A DNA stretch of 9,142 nt from Myxococcota bacterium (lineage in GTDB: Bacteria > Myxococcota_A > UBA9160 > PR03), in NCBI GenBank assembly GCA_030066475.1, contig JASJBO010000308.1, positions 1-9,142 on the forward strand. The letters are read 5' to 3'. Made by a program: the position numbers and the translations under genes. The notes beneath the pieces are model-generated. The model worked only from the letters and a program-made list of their open reading frames with translations. It made no database searches and was not told the origin of the DNA. Positions 735 to 8,957 of this stretch are shown here, in pieces (within the stretch, counting starts at the first letter, position 1; each line of letters opens with the position of its first letter).

Positions 735-2489
735 TTGGCGAACGACGCGGCGCTCCTGTTCACCGGCGGCAGGGTTCTCGTCCTCGACGGACCGGCCCGC
801 GAGGCGCAGGCGCTGCTGGTCCGGGCGGGGCGCGTGGTCGCGGCGGGCGACCGCGCGGAGCTGCGCGCGGCCGCAGGCAGCGGGGCGCGCGAGATCGACC
901 TGGATGGCGCGACCGCGCTCCCCGGCCTGATCGACACCCACCCCCACCTGCTCCACTTCGGCGTGCTGTCGGAGCCACTGGTCGACATCGGCGACGCGCG
1001 CTCGCACGCCGACATCGTCGAGCGCATCGCGCAGCGGGCGGAGGCAGAGCCCGCCGGCGAGTGGATCATGGCGACCCCGGTCGGCGAGCCCCACTACTTC
1101 CTGCGGCGCTCCTGGCGCGACCTCGCCGAGGGCGAGCTGCCGGATCGCGCCGTCCTCGACCGCGCGACCGCGCAACATCCGGTCTTCGTCCAGGCGTGGG
1201 CGCCGGTCACGCCGAACGTGTGCGCCTTCAACTCCGCGGCCCTCGAGCGGCTCGACATCGCGCGCGAGAGCCCGGACCGCATCGAGAACGTCTGGATCGA
1301 GAAGGACGCGAGCGGCGCGCCGACCGGCCGCCTGCACGGCTCGGTCAACAACTACTACTCCAATGATCCGTTCATGGAAGGCCTGCTGCGCCAGATCCCG
1401 ATCCTCCAGCTCGACAAGACCGTGCCGGGGGTCGTGCGCAGCATGGCCGCCTACAACCGCCTGGGCGTCACCACCGTCTACGAGGGACACGCGATGTCCG
1501 AGGCGGAGATCGCCGTCTACGGCCACCTGCGCGAGACGCGGCAGCTCACCCTGCGCGTCCTCACCGCCCTGGAGGCGGAAGCCTACGGCCTGCCCTGGAG
1601 CCGCCCGCTCTCCGACGCAGCCTTCCACACCAACCTGGAGCGCGCCCTGGCCCTCGAGTCGCCGGAAGACGACTGGCTGCGTCATCGGGGCGTCACGCTC
1701 TCGCGCGGCGGTCCGTGCTGGCCGGGCTTCCTCCGCATGCACGCCGCCTACGAGGGACCCTACGGCGAGCCCACGCGCGGGGTGACCTTCGTCCCGGCCG
1801 AGCGAGAGCAGATGGCGCTCGAGTTCTGCGCCGAGCGCGGCCTGCGACTCAACTTCATCGGCACCGGCGACCGCGACCACGACGAGTTCCTGGAGCGCGC
1901 AGAGGCCGTGGCGAAGCGGCACCCCGTGGCCGCCCGGCGCTGGATCCTCCAGCATGTCTACCTGCTGAGCGAGCGCCAGGCCGAGCGCTACGCGGCGCTG
2001 GGCTTCGACGTCACCACCAGCATGTCGTTCTCGTGGGGCAAGGGCGACCTGATCGGCGCGCGCGTCGGTCGACACGCGTGGGCCGACCTGATCCCGCTGC
2101 GCCGGATGCTGGACGCGGGCCTGTGTGTGGCCTGCGGGACCGACTGGGGCCCCAAGAACGTCTTCGAGCAGATCCAGCTGGCCGAGACGCACCGCTTCGA
2201 GGGCAGCGGCCACTGCAACCGGGGCCCAGGTCAGCTGGTGACGCGCGCCGAGGCGCTCGCGATGTGGACGCGCGATGCGGCACGCGTGCTCGGCTGGGCG
2301 GGGATCGGCACGCTCGCACCCGGCAGCCACGCCGATCTGACCATCGTCGACCGGGATCCGCTGCGCTGCCACCTCGAGGAGCTCCCGGAGACCCGCGTGC
2401 TCGCGACCGTCGTGGGCGGCGAGACCGTGTACGCGGGCGGTGAGCCCGCCACGCTGCCGGCCGGGCCGGAAGAGCGGGGACCGCTTTGA
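735..2489 (+). CDS. YtcJ-like metal-dependent amidohydrolase (amidohydrolase family 3)
   Basis: A 584-residue hydrolase of the YtcJ/NfdA type (PF07969), which normally hydrolyses amide, formamide or related C-N bonds at a metal centre in the cytoplasm. The N-terminal beta-sandwich start, LLFTGGRVLVLDGPA (7-21), is followed by the first metal-binding motif DTHPH (67-71, H69 and H71). Later come ILQHVYLL with H407 and GTDWG with catalytic D470. The C-terminal GIGTLAPGSHADLTIVDRDP (523-542) is the usual closing sandwich. At the place where relatives have a HAIGD motif, this protein reads FIGTGD (374-379), so one metal-binding His seems to be absent. The TTG start is preceded by AAGGA at 721-725 and places the N-terminus as in relatives. 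It is the first gene of a tight three-gene operon and overlaps the next gene by four bases. The substrate cannot be named. Confidence 0.9.
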   Translation: MANDAALLFTGGRVLVLDGPAREAQALLVRAGRVVAAGDRAELRAAAGSGAREIDLDGATALPGLIDTHPHLLHFGVLSEPLVDIGDARSHADIVERIAQRAEAEPAGEWIMATPVGEPHYFLRRSWRDLAEGELPDRAVLDRATAQHPVFVQAWAPVTPNVCAFNSAALERLDIARESPDRIENVWIEKDASGAPTGRLHGSVNNYYSNDPFMEGLLRQIPILQLDKTVPGVVRSMAAYNRLGVTTVYEGHAMSEAEIAVYGHLRETRQLTLRVLTALEAEAYGLPWSRPLSDAAFHTNLERALALESPEDDWLRHRGVTLSRGGPCWPGFLRMHAAYEGPYGEPTRGVTFVPAEREQMALEFCAERGLRLNFIGTGDRDHDEFLERAEAVAKRHPVAARRWILQHVYLLSERQAERYAALGFDVTTSMSFSWGKGDLIGARVGRHAWADLIPLRRMLDAGLCVACGTDWGPKNVFEQIQLAETHRFEGSGHCNRGPGQLVTRAEALAMWTRDAARVLGWAGIGTLAPGSHADLTIVDRDPLRCHLEELPETRVLATVVGGETVYAGGEPATLPAGPEERGPL

Positions 2490-3193
2490 GGATCGCAGTG
2501 CTCCAGCACGTGCCGTTCGAGGGACCCGCCGCCATCGGCGACTGGGCGGCGCAGCGCGGGCACGCGCTCGCGACGCGGCGTCTGTTCGAGGGCGAGGCGC
2601 TGCCGGAGATCGACGAGGCGGACGCCCTGCTCGTGATGGGCGGTCCGATGGGCGCCAACGACGACGCGCACTACCCGTGGATGCGTCCGGAGCGCGAGCG
2701 GGTGGCGGCGTTCCTCGGCGCCGGCAAGCCGCTGCTGGGCATCTGCCTCGGCGCCCAGATCCTCGCGCGCGCCGCCGGCGCGCGGGTCTACCCCGGCCCC
2801 GAGAAGGAGATCGGCTGGTTGCCCGCCGAGCGGATGCCGGCCGCGAGCGACTCGCTGCTCGCCGCCCTGCCCGACCCGTTCGTGCCCTTCCACTGGCACG
2901 GCGACACCTTCGACCTGCCCGCCGGCGCCCGCCACCTGGCGCGCTCGGAGCGCTGCACGCACCAGGCCTTCCAGCTCGGTCCCTGCGCGCTGGGCCTGCA
3001 GTTCCACCTGGAGGCGACGCTCGAGAGCATCGCAGCCATGCTGCAGGCGTGTGCCGACGAGCTCGGCGAGCCGGGCAGCGGCATCCAGACGGCGGACGCG
3101 ATCCGCGGCGCGGCCGCAGAGCGAGTCCGGGCGCTGCACGAGCCGCTGCGCGCGATGCTGGACGCCTGGAGCGGAGCCGGCGCCGACGGCTGA
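2486..3193 (+). CDS. Class I glutamine amidotransferase-like protein (GuaA-type domain)
   Basis: A 235-residue stand-alone glutamine amidotransferase domain resembling the YfeJ/GuaA-like group. The triad is complete: nucleophile C87 in GICLGAQ (85-91), and H174 and E176 in LQFHLE (171-176). The oxyanion region is VMGGPMG (50-56). FHWHGDTFDLPAGA (135-148) is typical of this subgroup. No synthetase domain is attached, so it may hydrolyse gamma-glutamyl compounds or pass ammonia to a separate partner. The TTG start overlaps the amidohydrolase stop (TTGA, 2486-2489), with GGGGA at 2476-2480 as a ribosome-binding site inside the upstream gene. Translation is therefore probably coupled. The start must be here because the first beta strand (RIAVLQH) begins at residue 2. 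The roughly 50 residues after E176 form an Ala/Glu-rich helical tail. Confidence 0.88.
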   Translation: MRIAVLQHVPFEGPAAIGDWAAQRGHALATRRLFEGEALPEIDEADALLVMGGPMGANDDAHYPWMRPERERVAAFLGAGKPLLGICLGAQILARAAGARVYPGPEKEIGWLPAERMPAASDSLLAALPDPFVPFHWHGDTFDLPAGARHLARSERCTHQAFQLGPCALGLQFHLEATLESIAAMLQACADELGEPGSGIQTADAIRGAAAERVRALHEPLRAMLDAWSGAGADG

Positions 3194-3205
3194 GGAGGCA
3201 ACGCG

Positions 3206-3824
3206 ATGCAGGATCTCACGGGAGCGGTCGCCGTCGTGACCGGCGGCGGCGACGGCATCGGCCGCGCCCTGGTGCTCGAGCTGGCGCGCGCCGGCGCCCA
3301 GGTCGCCGCAGCGGACATCCGGGAGGACGCCGCCAAGGCGGTCGCCGACGAGGCCGGCGCGCTCGGCGTGCGCGCGCTCGCGGTCGGCTGCGACGTGTCC
3401 GACGAGGCTTCGGTCGCGGCCCTGGCCGAGCGCGTGCTCGGCGAGCTGGGCCCCGTCCGCATCGTCTGGGGCCTACGCCGCCAGCAAGTTCGCGGTGATC
3501 GGCGTCGCCGAAGGCCTGCGTACCGAGCTCGAGGCGGACGGCATCGGCGTCACCGTCCTGTGCCCGGGCCTGGTGAACACGCGCATCTGGAACGGCGCCC
3601 GGGCGCGCCCCGAGCGCTTCGGCGGACCACGCCACCTTCCCGAGGCGATCGGCGAGCGCTGGCGAAGCGACGGCATGTCCGTCGAGGCGGTCGGGCGCTG
3701 GGGGGTGGAGGCGCTGCGAGCGGGCCGCTTCTTCGCGCTGATGCCGGACGACGAGGAGCGCGCCGGCTTCCTGACCCGCCGCCACGAGGAGATCCTGGCG
3801 GGCGTCCGCTACCCCGGCCGCTGA
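3206..3824 (+). pseudogene. Short-chain dehydrogenase/reductase with internal deletion and frameshift
   Basis: The frame starting at 3206 encodes the N-terminal Rossmann half of an SDR. It has the dinucleotide motif TGGGDGIG (residues 12-19), an acidic D37 after beta-2 that suggests NAD preference, and CDVSDEASV (62-70). It runs normally to LGPVRIV (81-87), where relatives continue into the NNAG motif. Instead the DNA jumps at about 3464-3471 into another frame reading AYAASKFAVIGVAEGL, which carries the catalytic Tyr and Lys, and continues to the normal C-terminus at 3824. About 65-70 residues are missing, including NNAG and the catalytic Ser, and the loss is not a multiple of three. Left in its original frame, the first half would be read into a nonsense tail ending near 3979. 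The gene has a strong GAGGAGG site (3192-3198) directly after the upstream stop and is the third gene of the operon. A metagenomic assembly collapse would look the same. Confidence 0.82.
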
Positions 3825-3830
3825 GTCGCC

Positions 3831-5036
3831 TCACTCGCGCCGGGCGTCGAAGCCGGCCTCGGCGAGCGCGGCCAGCACCGCCTCGGCCTGCTCCTCGCCG
3901 CGCATCTGGAGCACCAGGTCCACGCGCACGGCACGGGCCGACGAGATGCGGAAGCGGCGCTGCTGCGTCACCTCGATGATGTTGCAGTTCATCGCGCCGA
4001 TGCGTGCGGCCAGGTCGCCGAGCGCGCCGGGCACGTCGCGCAGCTCCACGCCGATCCGAACCAGCCGGTGGGTGCGCACCAGGCCGCGCTGGAGGATCGA
4101 CGAGAGCACCATCAGGTCGATGTTCCCGCCGCAGAGCACGAGGCCCACGCGGCGCCCGGCGAAGCGCTCGCGCTGGCTGTCGAGCGCGGCGAGGCCGGCC
4201 GCGCCCGCCCCCTCGACCACGGTCTTCTCGACCTCGAGCAGCGCGAACACGGCCGCCTCGATCGCGTCCTCGCTCACCAGCACGACGTCGTCCGCGTGGC
4301 GGCGGATCAGCGCCAGGGTGCGCTCGCCGGGCACCTCCACCGCGATCCCTTCGGCCACGCTGCCACCGCCCGGCACCCGCGCGGCCAGACCGTGGAACGC
4401 CTGGTGCGCCGCCGGGTAGCGCTCGCTCTGCACGCCGATCACCTCGGTCGCCGGTGCGCGGGCCTTGATCGCCGTGGCGACACCGGCCAGCAGCCCGCCG
4501 CCGCCGATCGGCACCAGCACGGCGTCGAACTCGGGGCCGTCCTCGAGCATCTCGAGCGCGAGCGTCCCCTGCCCGGCGATCACGGCGTCGTCCTCGAATG
4601 GATGCACCAGCGTGAGCCCGCGCCGCGCGGCCTGCTCGCGGGTGAACGCCCGCGTCTCGTCGAACCGTTCGCCGTGCAGCAGCACCTCGGCGCCGTGCAC
4701 GCGCGTCTGCTCGACCTTCACGTTGGGCGTCGAGCGCGGCATCACGATCACCGTGGGGATGCCCAGGCGCTTGCCGTGGTAGGCGACCGCCTGGGCGTGG
4801 TTGCCGGCCGACATCGCGATCACGCCCCGGGCGCGGGCCTCGGCGTCGAGGGTGAGCAGCCGATTCAACGCGCCGCGCTCCTTGAACGACGCCGTGAACT
4901 GCTGGTTCTCGAACTTGAGCCAGACCTCGGCGCCGCTGGTGGCGGAGAGCGTCCGCGAGTGCGCGAGCGGCGTCCGCTCGACCTGGTCGCCGAGGCGCGC
5001 GCGAGCAGCCTCGATCTCCCGGAGGGTCACGCTCAT
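3831..5036 (-). CDS. ilvA: Threonine ammonia-lyase (threonine dehydratase), PLP-dependent, with C-terminal ACT domain
   Basis: A 401-residue fold-type II PLP enzyme that deaminates L-threonine (often also serine) to 2-oxobutyrate, feeding isoleucine synthesis or threonine catabolism. Visible motifs are the Schiff-base lysine K52 in TASFKERGA (48-56), the substrate loop SAGNHAQ (76-82), the phosphate-binding glycines GGGG (178-181) and CGGN (302-305), whose Cys contacts the pyridine ring. Residues about 327-398 form a single ACT domain beginning VRIGVELRDVPGALGDLA. This is the ~400-residue, one-ACT form, unlike the ~500-residue biosynthetic enzyme, so the symbol is used loosely (tdcB-like is equally fair). 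No good Shine-Dalgarno sequence precedes the ATG. It converges on the broken dehydrogenase with a six-base gap and is divergent from the small VOC gene. Confidence 0.93.
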   Translation of the reverse strand: MSVTLREIEAARARLGDQVERTPLAHSRTLSATSGAEVWLKFENQQFTASFKERGALNRLLTLDAEARARGVIAMSAGNHAQAVAYHGKRLGIPTVIVMPRSTPNVKVEQTRVHGAEVLLHGERFDETRAFTREQAARRGLTLVHPFEDDAVIAGQGTLALEMLEDGPEFDAVLVPIGGGGLLAGVATAIKARAPATEVIGVQSERYPAAHQAFHGLAARVPGGGSVAEGIAVEVPGERTLALIRRHADDVVLVSEDAIEAAVFALLEVEKTVVEGAGAAGLAALDSQRERFAGRRVGLVLCGGNIDLMVLSSILQRGLVRTHRLVRIGVELRDVPGALGDLAARIGAMNCNIIEVTQQRRFRISSARAVRVDLVLQMRGEEQAEAVLAALAEAGFDARRE

Positions 5037-5086
5037 CCGACGGCATATACTACCGGCAAGAGCGGCCCGAACCCGAGGAGACCCCC
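5037..5086. promoter_or_regulatory. Divergent promoter region between ilvA and the small VOC gene
   Basis: This 50-base gap is the only space for the promoters of two divergent genes. TATACT at 5046-5051 is a good -10 candidate on the plus strand and would give a leader of about 30 bases before the VOC start. On the minus strand the overlapping TAGTAT would place the transcript start only a few bases before the ilvA ATG. No convincing -35 is visible for either direction. GAGGAG at 5075-5080 is the ribosome-binding site of the VOC gene. Confidence 0.35.
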
Positions 5087-5464
5087 ATGAGCATCCGCGC
5101 CAAGGCCCACCACATGTCCTTCCCCGTGACCGACCTGGCCCGCTCGCGGCGCTTCTACGAGGACGTGCTCGGCCTCGAGACGATCCCGCGCCCCGACCTC
5201 GGCGCGCTGGGCGGCGTCTGGTACGGCGCGGGCGCCTGCGAGGTGCACCTGATCGAGATGCCGGGGGGCACCCAGCTCACGGCGCCGCCGGCCAAGACCA
5301 ACCCGATCGACCGCCACGCCGCCTTCGCGGTCGAGGACTACGACGCAACGCTCGCCCACCTCGAGAGCCACGGGCTCGAGGTGGTCCAGAGCCCGCGCGG
5401 CGGCCAGTTGTGGGTGCAGGACCCCGACGGCCACATCATCGAGCTGATCGTCGCCGGGACGTAG
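5087..5464 (+). CDS. Small VOC-family protein (glyoxalase/dioxygenase-like)
   Basis: A 125-residue, two-module VOC protein of standard length. Module one reads HHMSFPVTDLARSRRFYEDV (8-27) and CEVHLIE (51-57). Module two has the metal-ligand His in RHAAFAVEDYD (76-86) and closes with QDPDGHIIELIV (111-122). Candidate metal ligands are H8 or H9, E52, H77 and E119, so the metal site appears intact. The ATG is supported by GAGGAG six bases upstream. It is unrelated in detail to the larger VOC protein at the left of the window. It stands alone on the plus strand, divergent from ilvA. The family includes glyoxalases, epimerases, fosfomycin-resistance enzymes and extradiol dioxygenases; the sequence alone does not choose between them. 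Confidence 0.88.
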   Translation: MSIRAKAHHMSFPVTDLARSRRFYEDVLGLETIPRPDLGALGGVWYGAGACEVHLIEMPGGTQLTAPPAKTNPIDRHAAFAVEDYDATLAHLESHGLEVVQSPRGGQLWVQDPDGHIIELIVAGT

Positions 5465-5556
5465 CTGGCTACGCCGGCCTGCCAAGGCGGGAGATGCGAA
5501 CGAGGTTGCCCGCGCAAGCGCCGCCCTCGCGTTCCGCACGGAGGGCCCGCTCCGAG

Positions 5557-5591
5557 CGGCGCGCGCAGCGAGCCGAAGGCGAGCGAAGTCC
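5557..5591. repeat. GC-rich 35-bp direct repeat, copy 1
   Basis: The segment contains GCGCGCAGCGAGCC and ends GCGAGCGAAGTCC. It matches 5655-5689 with one mismatch (A at 5576, C at 5674) at a distance of 98 bp. A larger, more variable unit can be drawn from GCAAGCGCCG (5514) to CAAG (5597). Such repeats are typically dispersed and intergenic in high-GC genomes. Confidence 0.85.
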
Positions 5592-5641
5592 ACCAAGACG
5601 CCCCCGCGCCAGCAACAGGTCCCTCCGCGGGCACCCCGCAA

Positions 5642-5660
5642 GCGCCGGCGAAGCCGGCGC
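5642..5660. repeat. Perfect inverted repeat (8-bp stem, GAA loop)
   Basis: GCGCCGGC-GAA-GCCGGCGC forms a perfect very GC-rich hairpin inside the second repeat unit, 31 bases past the MarR stop codon in its direction of transcription. There is no T-run, so it is not a classical intrinsic terminator. It could still protect the 3' end of the MarR or VOC transcripts. Confidence 0.6.
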
Positions 5661-5689
5661 GCGCAGCGAGCCGCAGGCGAGCGAAGTCC
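5655..5689. repeat. GC-rich 35-bp direct repeat, copy 2
   Basis: Second copy of the 5557-5591 repeat with one mismatch. It begins inside the hairpin at 5642-5660 and ends directly beside the MarR stop codon. The enclosing unit runs from GCAAGCGCCG (5638) to CAAG (5695). Confidence 0.85.
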
Positions 5690-5690
5690 T

Positions 5691-6143
5691 TCAAGCCGGC
5701 CGGTTTTCGTCGAGCCAGCTCTTCAGCCGGAGCAGCAGGCGGTGCAGCTCGGCCACCTCGCCGCGCTTCCAGCCGCGGAACACGTCCTGCCGGTCGGGCT
5801 CGAGCCGCCCCACCATCGCGTCGCGCAGGCGCACCCCGCGACGGGTGACGCGCAGCCAACGCACGCGGCCGTCACCCGGGTCGGGGCGCGACGCCAGCAG
5901 CCCCAGCTCGAGCAGCTTCTTCACCTGCTTCGTCATGCCCGGCTGGTTCACCTCGAAGGCGGCAGCGAGCTGGGTCACCGTCCACTCGCGGTCGGGGTCG
6001 TGGCAGAAGTGGCGCAGCAGCACGAACAGCGGGTACGGCAGCTCGGCGTCGCGCAGGATCCGGTTGGCGCGCGTCCGCACGAGCTGCGTCACGACCCCGC
6101 ACCAGATCAGGATCTCCTCCTCCTGCGGGCGCTTCGGTCGCAC
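5691..6143 (-). CDS. MarR-family transcriptional regulator
   Basis: A 150-residue winged helix-turn-helix protein of normal MarR length. Helices occupy residues 8-32. The helix-turn-helix reads WTVTQLAAAFEVNQPGMTKQ (54-73), followed by KKLLELGLLASRPDPGDGR (75-93). The wing strand is VRWLRVT (94-100), and C-terminal dimerisation helices follow. MarR proteins bind palindromes as dimers and usually repress their own operon until a small ligand or oxidant releases them. The GTG start lies two bases after the lipoprotein stop (TAG-CG-GTG), with GGAG about eleven bases upstream, so the two genes form one operon. Upstream extension of the frame has no better start and runs antisense-like through the lipoprotein gene. 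The palindromes at 6626-6657 upstream of the operon are the natural candidate operator. C16 and C47 are the only cysteines. Confidence 0.88.
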   Translation of the reverse strand: MRPKRPQEEEILIWCGVVTQLVRTRANRILRDAELPYPLFVLLRHFCHDPDREWTVTQLAAAFEVNQPGMTKQVKKLLELGLLASRPDPGDGRVRWLRVTRRGVRLRDAMVGRLEPDRQDVFRGWKRGEVAELHRLLLRLKSWLDENRPA

Positions 6144-6145
6144 CG

Positions 6146-6607
6146 CTAGCGCGACTCCATCCGGAAGATCCAGGCCTGCTCGGCGTGGGCGTCTGCCTCC
6201 ACCTCGTACTTGGCCAGCAGCGCGCTGCGCACGCGCTCGCGCTCGGCCTGGTCGTCCACCCGCACCGCCCTCAGCTCGTACACCGTTCCGTCGATGCGCA
6301 GCCGCACGTCCGGGCTCTCGATCACGTTGCGCACCCAGCTGCGCTCGTTCGGGTCGTCGGGGCCGAGGATCAGGGAGGTCGGCACGTAGAGGCGGCCGTC
6401 CACCTCGCCGCACCAGACGTTGACCGAGTAGGGGTCGTCGGGGCGCGACTCGAGCTGGACGTTCTCGACGTCGGCGACGAAGGCCCAGTCCGGCGCCTCG
6501 CCCTCGTGGACGGGCCCGCGCAGGGCGCCGCCGGGAATCGGTCCGATCGGGCCACAGGCGCTGGCGAGGAGCAGGCTGGCGAGCAGAACGACGGGTCGGG
6601 GGTTCAC
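6146..6607 (-). CDS. Small lipoprotein, possible split-barrel (PNPOx/DUF385-like) domain
   Basis: A 153-residue protein starting at GTG, with a clear GGAGG site seven bases upstream (complement of 6615-6619). The N-terminus, NPRPVVLLASLLLASAC, is a lipoprotein signal with C18 as the lipidated cysteine, so the mature protein sits in the periplasm on a membrane. The rest is beta-rich: FVADVENVQLESR (43-55), YSVNVWCGEVDGRLYVPT (60-77), RSWVRNVIESPDVRLRIDGT (89-108), VYELRAVRVDD (109-119) and a final Glu/Arg-rich helix. This succession resembles the split beta-barrel of pyridoxine-oxidase-like and deazaflavin-dependent proteins, but I could not confirm it and no cofactor residues are certain. It heads the operon with the MarR regulator and is divergent from the kinase-like pair. 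Confidence 0.82.
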   Translation of the reverse strand: MNPRPVVLLASLLLASACGPIGPIPGGALRGPVHEGEAPDWAFVADVENVQLESRPDDPYSVNVWCGEVDGRLYVPTSLILGPDDPNERSWVRNVIESPDVRLRIDGTVYELRAVRVDDQAERERVRSALLAKYEVEADAHAEQAWIFRMESR

Positions 6608-6776: not shown

Positions 6777-7805
6777 ATGCGGTTCTCCATGCGAACGACT
6801 CTCCTCGGGCTCGCCGCCCCGGCGTTCCTGGCCTGCGCCACGCCGCAGTCGGTGCGCTTCGACACGGTGCCCCCGGGCCCGCCCGCCGATGCCCATCCCA
6901 ACCGGCGCCACCCCCCCCTGGTGTCGCTCGAAGAGCTCCGGGAGATCGATACCGCTCGCGCCGAGGTCCTCTCCGAGGAGGACGCGGGCGCCGGCGTCAC
7001 AGGGGCACGAAAGGTCGAGATCCGCCTGCCGTCCTTCGACGAGGACCTCGAGCTCAAGGTCAAGCAGGTGCCCGGCCGACTGGACGGCTGGAACAACTCG
7101 CCGCGCAAGGAGCTGGCCGCCTTCAAGGTCCAGCAGCTCTTCCTCGACCCGGTCGACTTCGTGGTGCCGACCACGGCCGTGCAGTGTCTGCCCCTGGATC
7201 GTGCCAGGAAGCTCGTCGGATCGACCTCGCCGAGCATCGAAGGCACCAACTGCGTGCTGGTGACCATCGCGATGTGGCTGCAGGACGTCACGCTCCCCGA
7301 CCTGCTCTACGACGAGGAGCGCTTCCTCTCCGAGCCCCGCTACGCCTACAACTTCGCCAACTTCAACGTGCTGACCCACCTGATCGCGCACCGCGACAAC
7401 CGTACGGGCAACTTCCTGGTGTCGAAGGACGACGAAGACCGCCGCGTCTACGCAATCGACAACGGCTCCACGTTCGGCGCGTGGTTCTTCAACTGGTTCT
7501 TCCCGTGGACCTACAGGTGGCACGACCTGCGCGTGCCCGCCCTGCCGCGCCAGACCGTGGAGCGCCTGCGAGCCCTGAGTCGCGAGGACCTCGACGTGCT
7601 CGCGGTCGTGTCCCAGCTGGAGGCCGACGAAGCCGGCATGCTGCGCGTCAGCGCACCCACGGTGCCGATCGACCCCGGCGAGGGGGTCCGAGTGGACGGC
7701 ACGACCGTACAGTTCGGTCTGACGACCGACGAGATCGACGACGTGTGGGAGCGGATCGAGGAGCTGCTCGAGGACGTGGACGAGGGCGACCTGGCGATCT
7801 TCTAG
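6777..7805 (+). CDS. Exported lipoprotein with type II PI4-kinase-like fold, paralogue 1
   Basis: A 342-residue protein. The N-terminus (MRFSMRTTLLGLAAPAFLAC) is a lipoprotein signal with C20 as the anchor, followed by a Pro-rich linker. The rest reads as a protein-kinase-like fold. There is a beta-3-like LELKVKQV (91-98, K94 or K96) and an alpha-C-like SPRKELAAFKVQQLF (108-122, E112). VVPTTAVQCLPL (129-140) follows, where type II PI4-kinases have a VPRT segment. The catalytic loop is HRDNRTGNFLV (205-215, D207 and N212) and the metal-binding motif YAIDNG (225-230, D228). A Trp/Phe-rich stretch, WFFNWFFPWTYRWHDL (236-251), then VPALP parallels the PI4K segment after IDNGLAF. Seen: the motifs. 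Inferred: phosphotransferase activity and family. The ATG is preceded by GGGGGC, also kept in paralogue 2. Substrate and phosphate donor outside the cytoplasm are unknown. Confidence 0.85.
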   Translation: MRFSMRTTLLGLAAPAFLACATPQSVRFDTVPPGPPADAHPNRRHPPLVSLEELREIDTARAEVLSEEDAGAGVTGARKVEIRLPSFDEDLELKVKQVPGRLDGWNNSPRKELAAFKVQQLFLDPVDFVVPTTAVQCLPLDRARKLVGSTSPSIEGTNCVLVTIAMWLQDVTLPDLLYDEERFLSEPRYAYNFANFNVLTHLIAHRDNRTGNFLVSKDDEDRRVYAIDNGSTFGAWFFNWFFPWTYRWHDLRVPALPRQTVERLRALSREDLDVLAVVSQLEADEAGMLRVSAPTVPIDPGEGVRVDGTTVQFGLTTDEIDDVWERIEELLEDVDEGDLAIF

Positions 7806-7853
7806 CGGGAGGCCCCGGTCGACGGATTCCTGCTGGGAGTCCCGTAGGCGCAC

Positions 7854-7889
7854 GCTGGTGCGCGGCGGCGGGCGCGCCTACCCTGCGGC
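7854..7889 (+). promoter_or_regulatory. Conserved upstream block, candidate promoter of kinase-like gene 2
   Basis: GCTGGTG (7854-7860) and the CGGGCGCGCCTA-CCCTGCGGC block (7869-7889) match the copy before gene 1 at the same spacing, one base differing in the longer block. TACCCT (7879-7884) occupies the -10 position. Retention suggests gene 2 has its own promoter and is not just read through from gene 1. Confidence 0.4.
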
Positions 7890-7919
7890 TCTTCGGGTTC
7901 TTCGGAATGGGGGCACCAG

Positions 7920-8957
7920 ATGCAGTTCTCCGTGCGATCGATCCTCCTCGGGCTCGCGGCCCCGGCATTCCTGGCCTGCGCCACGCCGCAATCCGTGCGC
8001 TTCGACTCGGTGCCGCCGGGTCCGCCCGCGGATGCCCATCCCAACCGGCTGCACGCACCCGTCGTGACGCTCGAGGAGCTGCAGGAGCTCGACCGCGCTC
8101 CCGTAGAGGTTCGATCCCAGGAGGGCGCCGGGGGGGGCGTCACGGGCGCCCGCAAGGTCGAGGTCGGCATCTACGTGCCAACCTATCACCGCGACCTCAA
8201 GCTCAAGATCAAGCCGGTCCCGGCCCGGCTCGACGGCTGGAACAACTCGCCGCGCAAGGAGCTGGCCACCTTCGAGGTCCAGCAGCTGTTCCTGGATCCG
8301 GTCGACTACGTCGTGCCGACCACGGCCATCCGCTGCCTGGAGATGGACCACGTCAGCCAGACCTATGGGGATCAGCGGGCGGCCACCGTGGAGGGCACCA
8401 ACTGCGTGCTCGCCATGATCGCGATGTGGTTGCAGGACGTCACCCTCCCCGACCCGCTCTACGACGAGGAGCGCTTCCTCTCCGACCCGCGCTACGCCTA
8501 CAACCTCGCCAACTTCAACATCTTGACCTACCTGGCCGACCACCGCGACAACCGCACCGGCAACTTCCTGGTCTCGAAGGACGAGGAGGACCGCCGCGCC
8601 TACGCGATCGACAACGGCATCACGTTCGGCGACTGGCTGTTCAACTGGTTCTTCCCGTGGACCTATGCCTGGCGCCAGATCCAGGTCCCGGCGCTGCCGC
8701 GCACGTCGGTGGAGCGCCTGCGTGCCCTGAACCGCGAGGACCTCGACGAGCTGGCGGTGGTGTCGCAGCTCGAGATGGACGCGGACGGCTTCTTGCGGGT
8801 CGCCGCGCCCACGGAGCCGTTCGACGCCGACGAAGGCGCGCGCCGGAGCGGCACCACCGTGCAGTTCGGTCTGACCCGGGACGAGATCGACGACGTGTGG
8901 GAGCGGATCCAGGACCTGCTCGAGGACGTGGACGAGGGCAAGCTGACGCTGTTCTAG
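7920..8957 (+). CDS. Exported lipoprotein with type II PI4-kinase-like fold, paralogue 2
   Basis: A 345-residue paralogue of the preceding gene. The lipoprotein signal is nearly the same, with C20 after LLGLAAPAFLA. All putative catalytic positions are kept: K96/K98 in DLKLKIKPV (92-100), E114 in SPRKELATFEV (110-120), HRDNRTGNFLVSK (208-220, D210 and N215) and YAIDNG (228-233, D231). The aromatic segment WLFNWFFPWTYAW (239-251) and VPALP follow. The two copies differ most in residues 82-92 (two extra residues here) and 142-157, and in the acidic linker around 60-72. The C-terminal helical part, DEIDDVWERIQDLLEDVDEG (321-340), is almost unchanged. The ATG was chosen for its match to paralogue 1; GGGGGCA lies just upstream. 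No terminator is visible in the 28-base gap to the convergent gene. Activity and substrate are inferred or unknown, as for paralogue 1. Confidence 0.85.
   Translation: MQFSVRSILLGLAAPAFLACATPQSVRFDSVPPGPPADAHPNRLHAPVVTLEELQELDRAPVEVRSQEGAGGGVTGARKVEVGIYVPTYHRDLKLKIKPVPARLDGWNNSPRKELATFEVQQLFLDPVDYVVPTTAIRCLEMDHVSQTYGDQRAATVEGTNCVLAMIAMWLQDVTLPDPLYDEERFLSDPRYAYNLANFNILTYLADHRDNRTGNFLVSKDEEDRRAYAIDNGITFGDWLFNWFFPWTYAWRQIQVPALPRTSVERLRALNREDLDELAVVSQLEMDADGFLRVAAPTEPFDADEGARRSGTTVQFGLTRDEIDDVWERIQDLLEDVDEGKLTLF

What the first reader, a model, noticed from the sequence alone, without database searches (positions are those of the whole stretch)
6777..8957. Tandem exported lipoproteins with a type II PI4-kinase-like catalytic core
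Both proteins combine a lipoprotein signal with an ordered set of kinase-like motifs: Lys/Glu in the N-lobe, VVPTTA, HRDNRTGNFLV, YAIDNG, then a W/F-rich stretch and VPALP. The order and spacing recall eukaryotic type II phosphatidylinositol 4-kinases (NTDRGNDNWL, then AIDNGLAFP, then YPFYWAWLP). An envelope-anchored kinase is unexpected because ATP is scarce outside the cytoplasm. It may use another donor, modify lipid or protein during export, or be a catalytically altered relative. Complete conservation of putative catalytic residues in both copies argues for activity.
Basis: partly seen in the sequence, partly recalled or inferred. Interest (0 to 1): 0.82.

Follow-up and report, generated by a model that had tools for sequence, protein, structure and literature searches.

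The report
Exported bacterial kinases paired with ATP translocases
Two neighbouring genes encode bacterial cell-envelope proteins with a kinase fold, and in many relatives a nearby gene encodes an ATP/ADP-translocase-type protein, which suggests that these bacteria may send ATP outwards to phosphorylate things in their envelope.

Summary

In 21 of 40 kinase loci an NTT (ATP/ADP translocase) gene lies in the fetched stretch, in 11 directly downstream. In 235 genomes of one phylum, NTT subtypes A/B occur in 14 of 16 kinase-positive and 27 of 219 kinase-negative genomes. In a second phylum, searched later, an NTT-type gene lies at 13 of 17 kinase loci and co-occurs in 16 of 17 kinase-positive against 5 of 183 other genomes. 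Subtypes A/B also adjoin a second exported kinase family (k2, Fam20-like fold).

Best reading: an NTT exchanges cytoplasmic ATP for envelope ADP, feeding exported kinases opposed by phosphatases. Transport direction, activity and substrate are inferred. The window has no NTT and its genome is not held; all six near-relative genomes checked have one elsewhere.

The parts
6777..7805 (+). copy 1: exported kinase-like lipoprotein, 342 aa (alternative start 6789)
   Evidence: homologues; weak PF00454 match at residues 185-234, below cut-off
6777..6836 (+). copy 1 signal peptide with lipobox FLAC; Cys20 codon 6834-6836
   Evidence: regular expression
7056..7058 (+). copy 1 Lys94 (K96 of copy 2), putative N-lobe Lys
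   Evidence: alignments; coordinates worked out by hand from the sequence
7395..7412 (+). copy 1 catalytic loop D207-NRTG-N212
   Evidence: sequence; conservation
7458..7466 (+). copy 1 metal-binding motif D228-N-G
   Evidence: sequence; conservation
7920..8957 (+). copy 2: exported kinase-like lipoprotein, 345 aa; structure modelled
   Evidence: AlphaFold model pLDDT 87.6, pTM 0.87; fold matches
7920..7979 (+). copy 2 signal peptide with lipobox FLAC; Cys20 codon 7977-7979
   Evidence: regular expression
8205..8207 (+). copy 2 Lys96
8259..8261 (+). copy 2 Glu114 (PRKE, in helix 111-123 of the model)
8547..8564 (+). copy 2 catalytic loop D210-NRTG-N215
8610..8618 (+). copy 2 D231-N-G

Best explanation
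Both genes encode envelope-anchored kinases (in some relatives apparently soluble exported ones) on the Fam20/PI4KII branch of the kinase fold. They work outside the cytoplasm on ATP that a translocase of the NTT family moves out through the inner membrane in exchange for the ADP the kinase makes; exported phosphatases reverse the reaction. The substrate is most likely an exported protein or an envelope lipid or glycan. Shown by computation: ORFs, fold, conserved catalytic residues, signal sequences, linkage and co-occurrence with NTT-type genes. Inferred: catalytic activity, ATP as donor, outward transport, substrate.
For: Fold and residues. Export: lipobox in 95 of 120 homologues, some of the rest truncated or with starts too short for the pattern; a cruder pattern found 25 of 41 ORFs at the loci; L036, L037 and L038 have a signal-like start without a lipobox; in L032 one ORF joins a signal-like start, a Beta-lactamase2 domain (E 9.4e-14) and the kinase. 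NTT ORF in the fetched stretch: 21 of 40 loci, directly downstream on the same strand in 11 (within 200 bases between stop-to-stop ORFs), divergent in 3, in records from five phyla. The chance for one locus, assuming 2-4 NTTs in 4.5 Mb, is about 1%. Genome co-occurrence of NTT subtypes A/B: 14 of 16 kinase-positive against 27 of 219 (Fisher 2.7e-10). Second phylum, after the hypothesis was formed: NTT-type gene at 13 of 17 kinase loci; genome co-occurrence 16 of 17 against 5 of 183, or 8 of 9 without the genomes that trained the profile. Subtypes A/B adjoin a second exported kinase family, k2, in 9 loci (Fam20-like fold); k2 genomes have A/B in 16 of 19 against 25 of 216. Phosphatases: Y_phosphatase3 type in 6 of 40 loci and calcineurin-like in 3 of 40, calcineurin-like in 12 of 17 in the second phylum.
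Against: The window has no NTT by profile scan and its genome is not held. In 19 of 40 loci no NTT is in the fetched stretch, including the closest relatives L001-L008 and L010; some stretches are short. Neither activity nor direction is known for these NTTs; PMC5381601 (parts 1-3 of 4 read) says the characterised ones are from parasites and organelles and serve uptake, and that S. negevensis NTT4 failed to transport nucleotides. N215 is Gln in 7 of 63 and K96 replaced in 3 of 65 rows. Two of 16 kinase-positive genomes lack A/B: G128 (fragment match with stops) and G166. Profiles A2/A3 were built partly from kinase-positive genomes; without those, 6 of 8 against 27 of 219, p 1.4e-4. By plain Pfam the contrast is weaker: 12 of 16 against 65 of 219. 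Genomes are related, so Fisher values overstate. Of A/B loci not beside this kinase, 13 of 29 (kinase-negative genomes) and 12 of 20 (kinase-positive) show none of the ATP-using families that I scanned. The one second-phylum NTT scanned in Pfam is just under the TLC cut-off (20.3 against 21 bits).
Confidence: 0.6

Rival explanations
1. The protein is an active exported kinase, but the NTT works inwards: it salvages nucleotides from the surroundings or prey, and the kinase uses extracellular ATP that is not self-supplied.
For: Characterised NTTs take nucleotides up (PMC5381601). NTTs of other subtypes in kinase-negative genomes recur, in 6 of 40 loci, with a protein that I read by eye as a nucleoside phosphorylase (not checked in Pfam).
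Against: The kinase-linked subtypes differ from those: the ATP-using families lie beside 16 of 29 A/B loci but 0 of 33 loci of other subtypes. These families were defined on these loci, so this is not blind.
Confidence: 0.17
2. The kinase fold is used for another reaction or donor (AMPylation, glutamylation, GTP or polyphosphate), or as a lipid kinase proper; the NTT is linked for that chemistry.
For: Kinase-fold proteins with other chemistry are known (SelO, SidJ: recalled; one search lists SidJ as a weak match for k2). PI4KII is close in structure. N215 varies in some members.
Against: The canonical set K, E, D, N, D is kept in nearly all members aligned.
Confidence: 0.15
3. A catalytically inactive or chance-linked lipoprotein: the NTT neighbourhood reflects inherited gene order without function.
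For: Linkage is clustered on the tree (9 label changes against a shuffled mean of 15.0, only 3 forced by well-supported branches), and no NTT was seen beside the kinase in the window's clade (6 of its 10 rows have short or unknown flanks).
Against: Linkage recurs with different NTT subtypes and orientations, in a second phylum, and for a second exported kinase family; co-occurrence persists where the genes are apart; the two Asp residues do not vary where aligned.
Confidence: 0.08

Closest known systems
Fam20 secretory-pathway kinases (animals)
   Different: No sequence membership (PF06702: none for the window proteins; 4 of 58 members at E<=1, best 0.019); bacterial and lipid-anchored; Asn at D+5 as in PI4KII (recalled)
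Type II phosphatidylinositol 4-kinases
   Different: Cytoplasmic-face eukaryotic enzymes (recalled); PF00454 cut-off not reached by the window proteins
NTT / TLC ATP-ADP translocases (PF03219)
   Same: Partner genes match PF03219 above cut-off in L009, L012, L013, L024, L034 and L037
   Different: All characterised ones are from parasites or organelles, and the functions of the HEAT fusions are given as unknown (PMC5381601)
CotH spore-coat kinase; H. pylori CtkA; HipA
   Different: Not envelope lipoproteins, no linked NTT known to me (recalled)

Membership tests
Type II PI4-kinase (PF00454 family) | Match to PF00454 above its cut-off | tested here: not met
   12.2 of 27.1 bits for copy 1, none for copy 2; best of 58 members E 6.8e-5, bits not shown
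Type II PI4-kinase | Kinase fold like PI4KII | tested here: met
Type II PI4-kinase | Phosphorylates phosphatidylinositol at D4 | not testable with these tools
   needs an assay
Fam20 | Match to PF06702 | tested here: not met
   no hit at E<=10 for either window protein; 4 of 58 members at E<=1, best 0.019
Fam20 | Fam20-like fold | tested here: met
Fam20 | Acts in a secretory compartment | tested here: inconclusive
   signal sequences only; no localisation
Bacterial lipoprotein | N-terminal signal with lipobox Cys | tested here: met
   both copies Cys20; 95 of 120 homologues by regular expression; column Cys 113 of 121
NTT-coupled envelope phosphorylation (proposed) | NTT gene linked to or co-occurring with the kinase gene | tested here: inconclusive
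   21 of 40 loci, 13 of 17 in the second phylum, 16 of 17 against 5 of 183 genomes; absent from the window, its genome not held
NTT-coupled envelope phosphorylation (proposed) | ATP is moved outwards and used by the kinase | not testable with these tools
   needs transport and kinase assays
Anti-phage defence (PADLOC) | Match to a PADLOC model | tested here: not met
   0 families for both copies and for one k2 protein

The most novel reading that the evidence does not exclude
Free-living bacteria of several phyla run ATP-powered chemistry in the cell envelope: particular NTT translocases export ATP against ADP to feed exported ATP-using enzymes of at least four kinds (the window's Fam20/PI4KII-like kinases, the k2 kinases, a third kinase-like domain joined to Omp85, and PPDK-type dikinases), with exported phosphatases as erasers. 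These NTTs would then be exporters, not marks of parasitism.
Probability: 0.5. Interest if true: 0.93.

Novelty: new variant of a known kind. Interest (0 to 1): 0.8.

Why it matters
The periplasm is held to lack ATP, so a conserved family of exported kinases needs an energy source; genomic linkage now names one and makes it testable. PMC5381601 says that all characterised NTTs come from parasites or organelles although free-living bacteria have many, and ATP/ADP translocases have been counted as a symbiosis factor (Omnitrophota, PMC10066038, passages read). If some of them export ATP, such inferences need review, and bacteria would have a counterpart to the secretory-pathway kinases of animals.

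Tried and rejected
Searches that led nowhere: window genome (none held); PDB by sequence (weak matches, E 0.076 and above, to a decarboxylase, tyrosyl-tRNA synthetases and, at 0.36, PI3K class III); NCBIfam (TIGR03843 at E 0.14, copy 2 only); PADLOC (none). In the class of G030 (Gammaproteobacteria by its record title) 1 of 229 genomes has the kinase, and that is G030 itself.

Rejected readings: membership in PI4KII or Fam20 by sequence; NTT presence by plain Pfam as a strong separator (12 of 16 against 65 of 219, p 4e-4); the effect in that phylum is mainly in subtypes A/B.

Limits of counts: genes were taken as stop-to-stop ORFs. The first neighbour count (15 loci) missed genes and was replaced by a profile count (21 of 40). 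The 40 loci came from conserved-peptide patterns, so distant members are under-sampled. One search was given 37 of the 40 loci, lying in 36 genomes: 30 have PF03219 over cut-off. NTT loci in kinase-negative genomes were picked from the best-scoring matches, some genomes more than once; one search counted 62 of them (29 A/B, 33 other). Only 1 of the 13 second-phylum NTTs and 1 of the 12 phosphatases were put to Pfam. The second-phylum loci are from related genomes; G033 was left out of the 17 because its locus L037 helped to build the profile. Loci without an NTT there: L192, L193 (genome G379, no NTT found), L194 and L198 (genomes G443 and G425, which have one elsewhere).

Literature: the pairing was not seen in eight searches of an open-access library, of which I saw listings. 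PMC5381601 was read in parts 1-3 of 4; PMC9758233 and PMC10066038 by passages; PMC7948968 by a term search with one hit, in its reference list; PMC5865150 by a term search with no hits; other papers as listings only.

Full report
What is there. The two ORFs at 6777-7805 and 7920-8957 are real and tandem. They are 74% identical, and dN is well under dS (0.167 against 0.437, NG86), as expected if both are under purifying selection. Seven neighbouring window ORFs were scanned and look like ordinary metabolic or regulatory genes. Profiles for NTT, k2, k3, PPDK-type and phosphatase genes find nothing convincing in the window (nttC 0.02 and omp 0.1 at best).

A large unnamed family. A protein search gives 573 relatives at E<=1e-3; where the 120 listed ones bear a name it is 'hypothetical protein'. 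The 40 loci found in genome contigs come mostly from uncultured Myxococcota/Deltaproteobacteria, with Kiloniellales, Gemmatimonadetes, Gammaproteobacteria and others by record title. In the 120 homologues plus copy 2, K96, E114, D210, N215 and D231 are invariant, as are C139 and C162. In a wider set D210 and D231 are 63 of 63 aligned rows and N215 56 of 63; in the second phylum C139 is kept in 2 of 17 and C162 in 0 of 17.

Export. Both window copies have a lipobox with Cys20; a regular expression finds one in 95 of 120 homologues, and a number of the misses are truncated or start just before the lipobox. L036, L037 and L038 have a hydrophobic signal-like start without a lipobox; L034 is ambiguous. 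In L032 one ORF runs from a signal-like start through a Beta-lactamase2 domain into the kinase, which argues for an extracytoplasmic kinase domain.

The neighbour. Clustering ORFs around the 40 loci turned up two recurrent families besides the kinase. Pfam identifies the first as TLC ATP/ADP transporter (E 3.7e-18, 1.1e-20, 1.8e-21, 1.3e-11 and 2.4e-10 in L009, L012, L013, L037 and L034; 8.8e-5, just over cut-off, in L024; a second, HEAT-fused copy in L012 is under the cut-off), and one member of the second as a tyrosine phosphatase (E 4.4e-64). A calcineurin-like phosphatase and a DUF2252/APH protein occur too. A profile scan finds an NTT ORF in 21 of 40 loci, in three subtypes that I call A, B and C, the last HEAT-fused. 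In 11 loci (L009, L012, L013, L015-L018, L020, L021, L023, L024) the NTT ORF starts within 200 bases downstream on the same strand; in L026, L030 and L035 it is divergent; the rest vary. The kinase tree of 44 rows needs 9 changes of the label 'NTT beside it' (shuffled mean 15.0; at least 3 forced by starred branches), so linkage is inherited in part; none is seen in the window's clade, where 6 of 10 rows have short or unknown flanks.

Genome level. Of 36 genomes that hold 37 of the kinase loci, 30 have PF03219 above cut-off. In 235 genomes of the phylum of G005, 16 have the kinase and 77 have PF03219. With subtype profiles (E<=1e-60), 14 of 16 kinase-positive and 27 of 219 kinase-negative genomes have subtype A or B. 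The profiles were partly trained on eight of the kinase-positive genomes; leaving those out gives 6 of 8 against 27 of 219, p 1.4e-4. Six of six genomes of the window's near relatives (G001-G006) have subtype A or B on another contig.

More possible ATP-users. Other recurrent neighbours of A/B NTTs are proteins with PPDK_N and PEP-utilizers domains (the second domain is under cut-off in L144 and L178; signal-like starts seen by eye in L026, L030 and L158, the others not examined), a protein with a kinase-like motif and, in L153, an Omp85 domain (k3), PAP2, and Omp85-like proteins under the Pfam cut-off. In A1-negative genomes a1/k2/k3/PPDK lie near 16 of 29 A/B loci and 0 of 33 other NTT loci; in A1-positive genomes, at NTT loci away from the first kinase, 8 of 20 and 0 of 7. 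These families were defined on these loci, so the contrast is descriptive.

Check in another phylum. After the hypothesis was formed I searched 200 genomes of the phylum of G033 (Gemmatimonadetes by the title of its record): 17 have the kinase. Of 17 loci fetched from the 16 genomes other than G033, 13 have an NTT-type gene (E 1e-68 to 2e-154 to the subtype C profile, which holds one sequence from this phylum) and 12 a calcineurin-like phosphatase. Pfam on one of each: HEAT, cNMP-binding, MFS and, just below cut-off, TLC (20.3 of 21 bits); PF00149 above cut-off, with a signal-like start seen by eye. Background in the same 200 genomes: an NTT of this kind (E<=1e-40, profile from eight of these genes) in 16 of 17 kinase-positive and 5 of 183 other genomes; without the eight genomes that trained the profile, 8 of 9 against 5 of 183. 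The genomes are related and count as few independent events.

Mechanism. An exported kinase needs ATP. NTTs of the ATP/ADP kind exchange the two nucleotides, so an NTT paired with an exported kinase could form a closed cycle: ATP out, phosphate transferred, ADP back. Linked exported phosphatases would make the modification reversible. Direction, activity and substrate are not shown. Characterised NTTs take nucleotides up (PMC5381601), which is the main rival.

Novelty. The parts are of known kinds; the pairing was not seen in the searches. I rate the kinase family as a new variant of a known kind and keep the ATP-export system as the bold reading.

Noticed in passing
window 3206-3824 (+): A short-chain dehydrogenase gene seems split over two frames: N-terminal adh_short in 3206-3979 (E 2e-16), a weak C-terminal match (E 0.008, under cut-off) in 3495-3824; a frameshift, real or from assembly.
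   Followed up: partly
window 735-6413: Ordinary genes: Amidohydro_3, GATase, PALP/ACT (threonine-dehydratase-like), glyoxalase, MarR regulator.
   Followed up: yes
L158, L187, L026, L178, L144: Proteins with PPDK_N and PEP-utilizers domains in unusual order, some with signal-like starts, near subtype B NTT and a serine-hydrolase-like gene: possible exported dikinase.
   Followed up: partly
L153 7351-10134, L176 7325-10129, L177 2715-5165, L163 12169-13500: k3: GDFDRHRKQWRW...PIPEDRD motif protein, Omp85 domain over cut-off in L153 and under it in L176, near subtype A/B NTT.
   Followed up: partly
L032 6876-8837: One ORF with a Beta-lactamase2 domain and the kinase.
   Followed up: partly
L098, L100, L113, L114, L120, L122: NTTs of other subtypes recur with a gene that I read by eye as nucleoside-phosphorylase-like, suggesting a salvage role for those.
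   Followed up: no
L018 11552-12934, L020 5416-6846: DUF2252/APH kinase-fold protein (L018 scanned) with a lipoprotein-like start by eye, in the same cluster as kinase, NTT and phosphatase.
   Followed up: no
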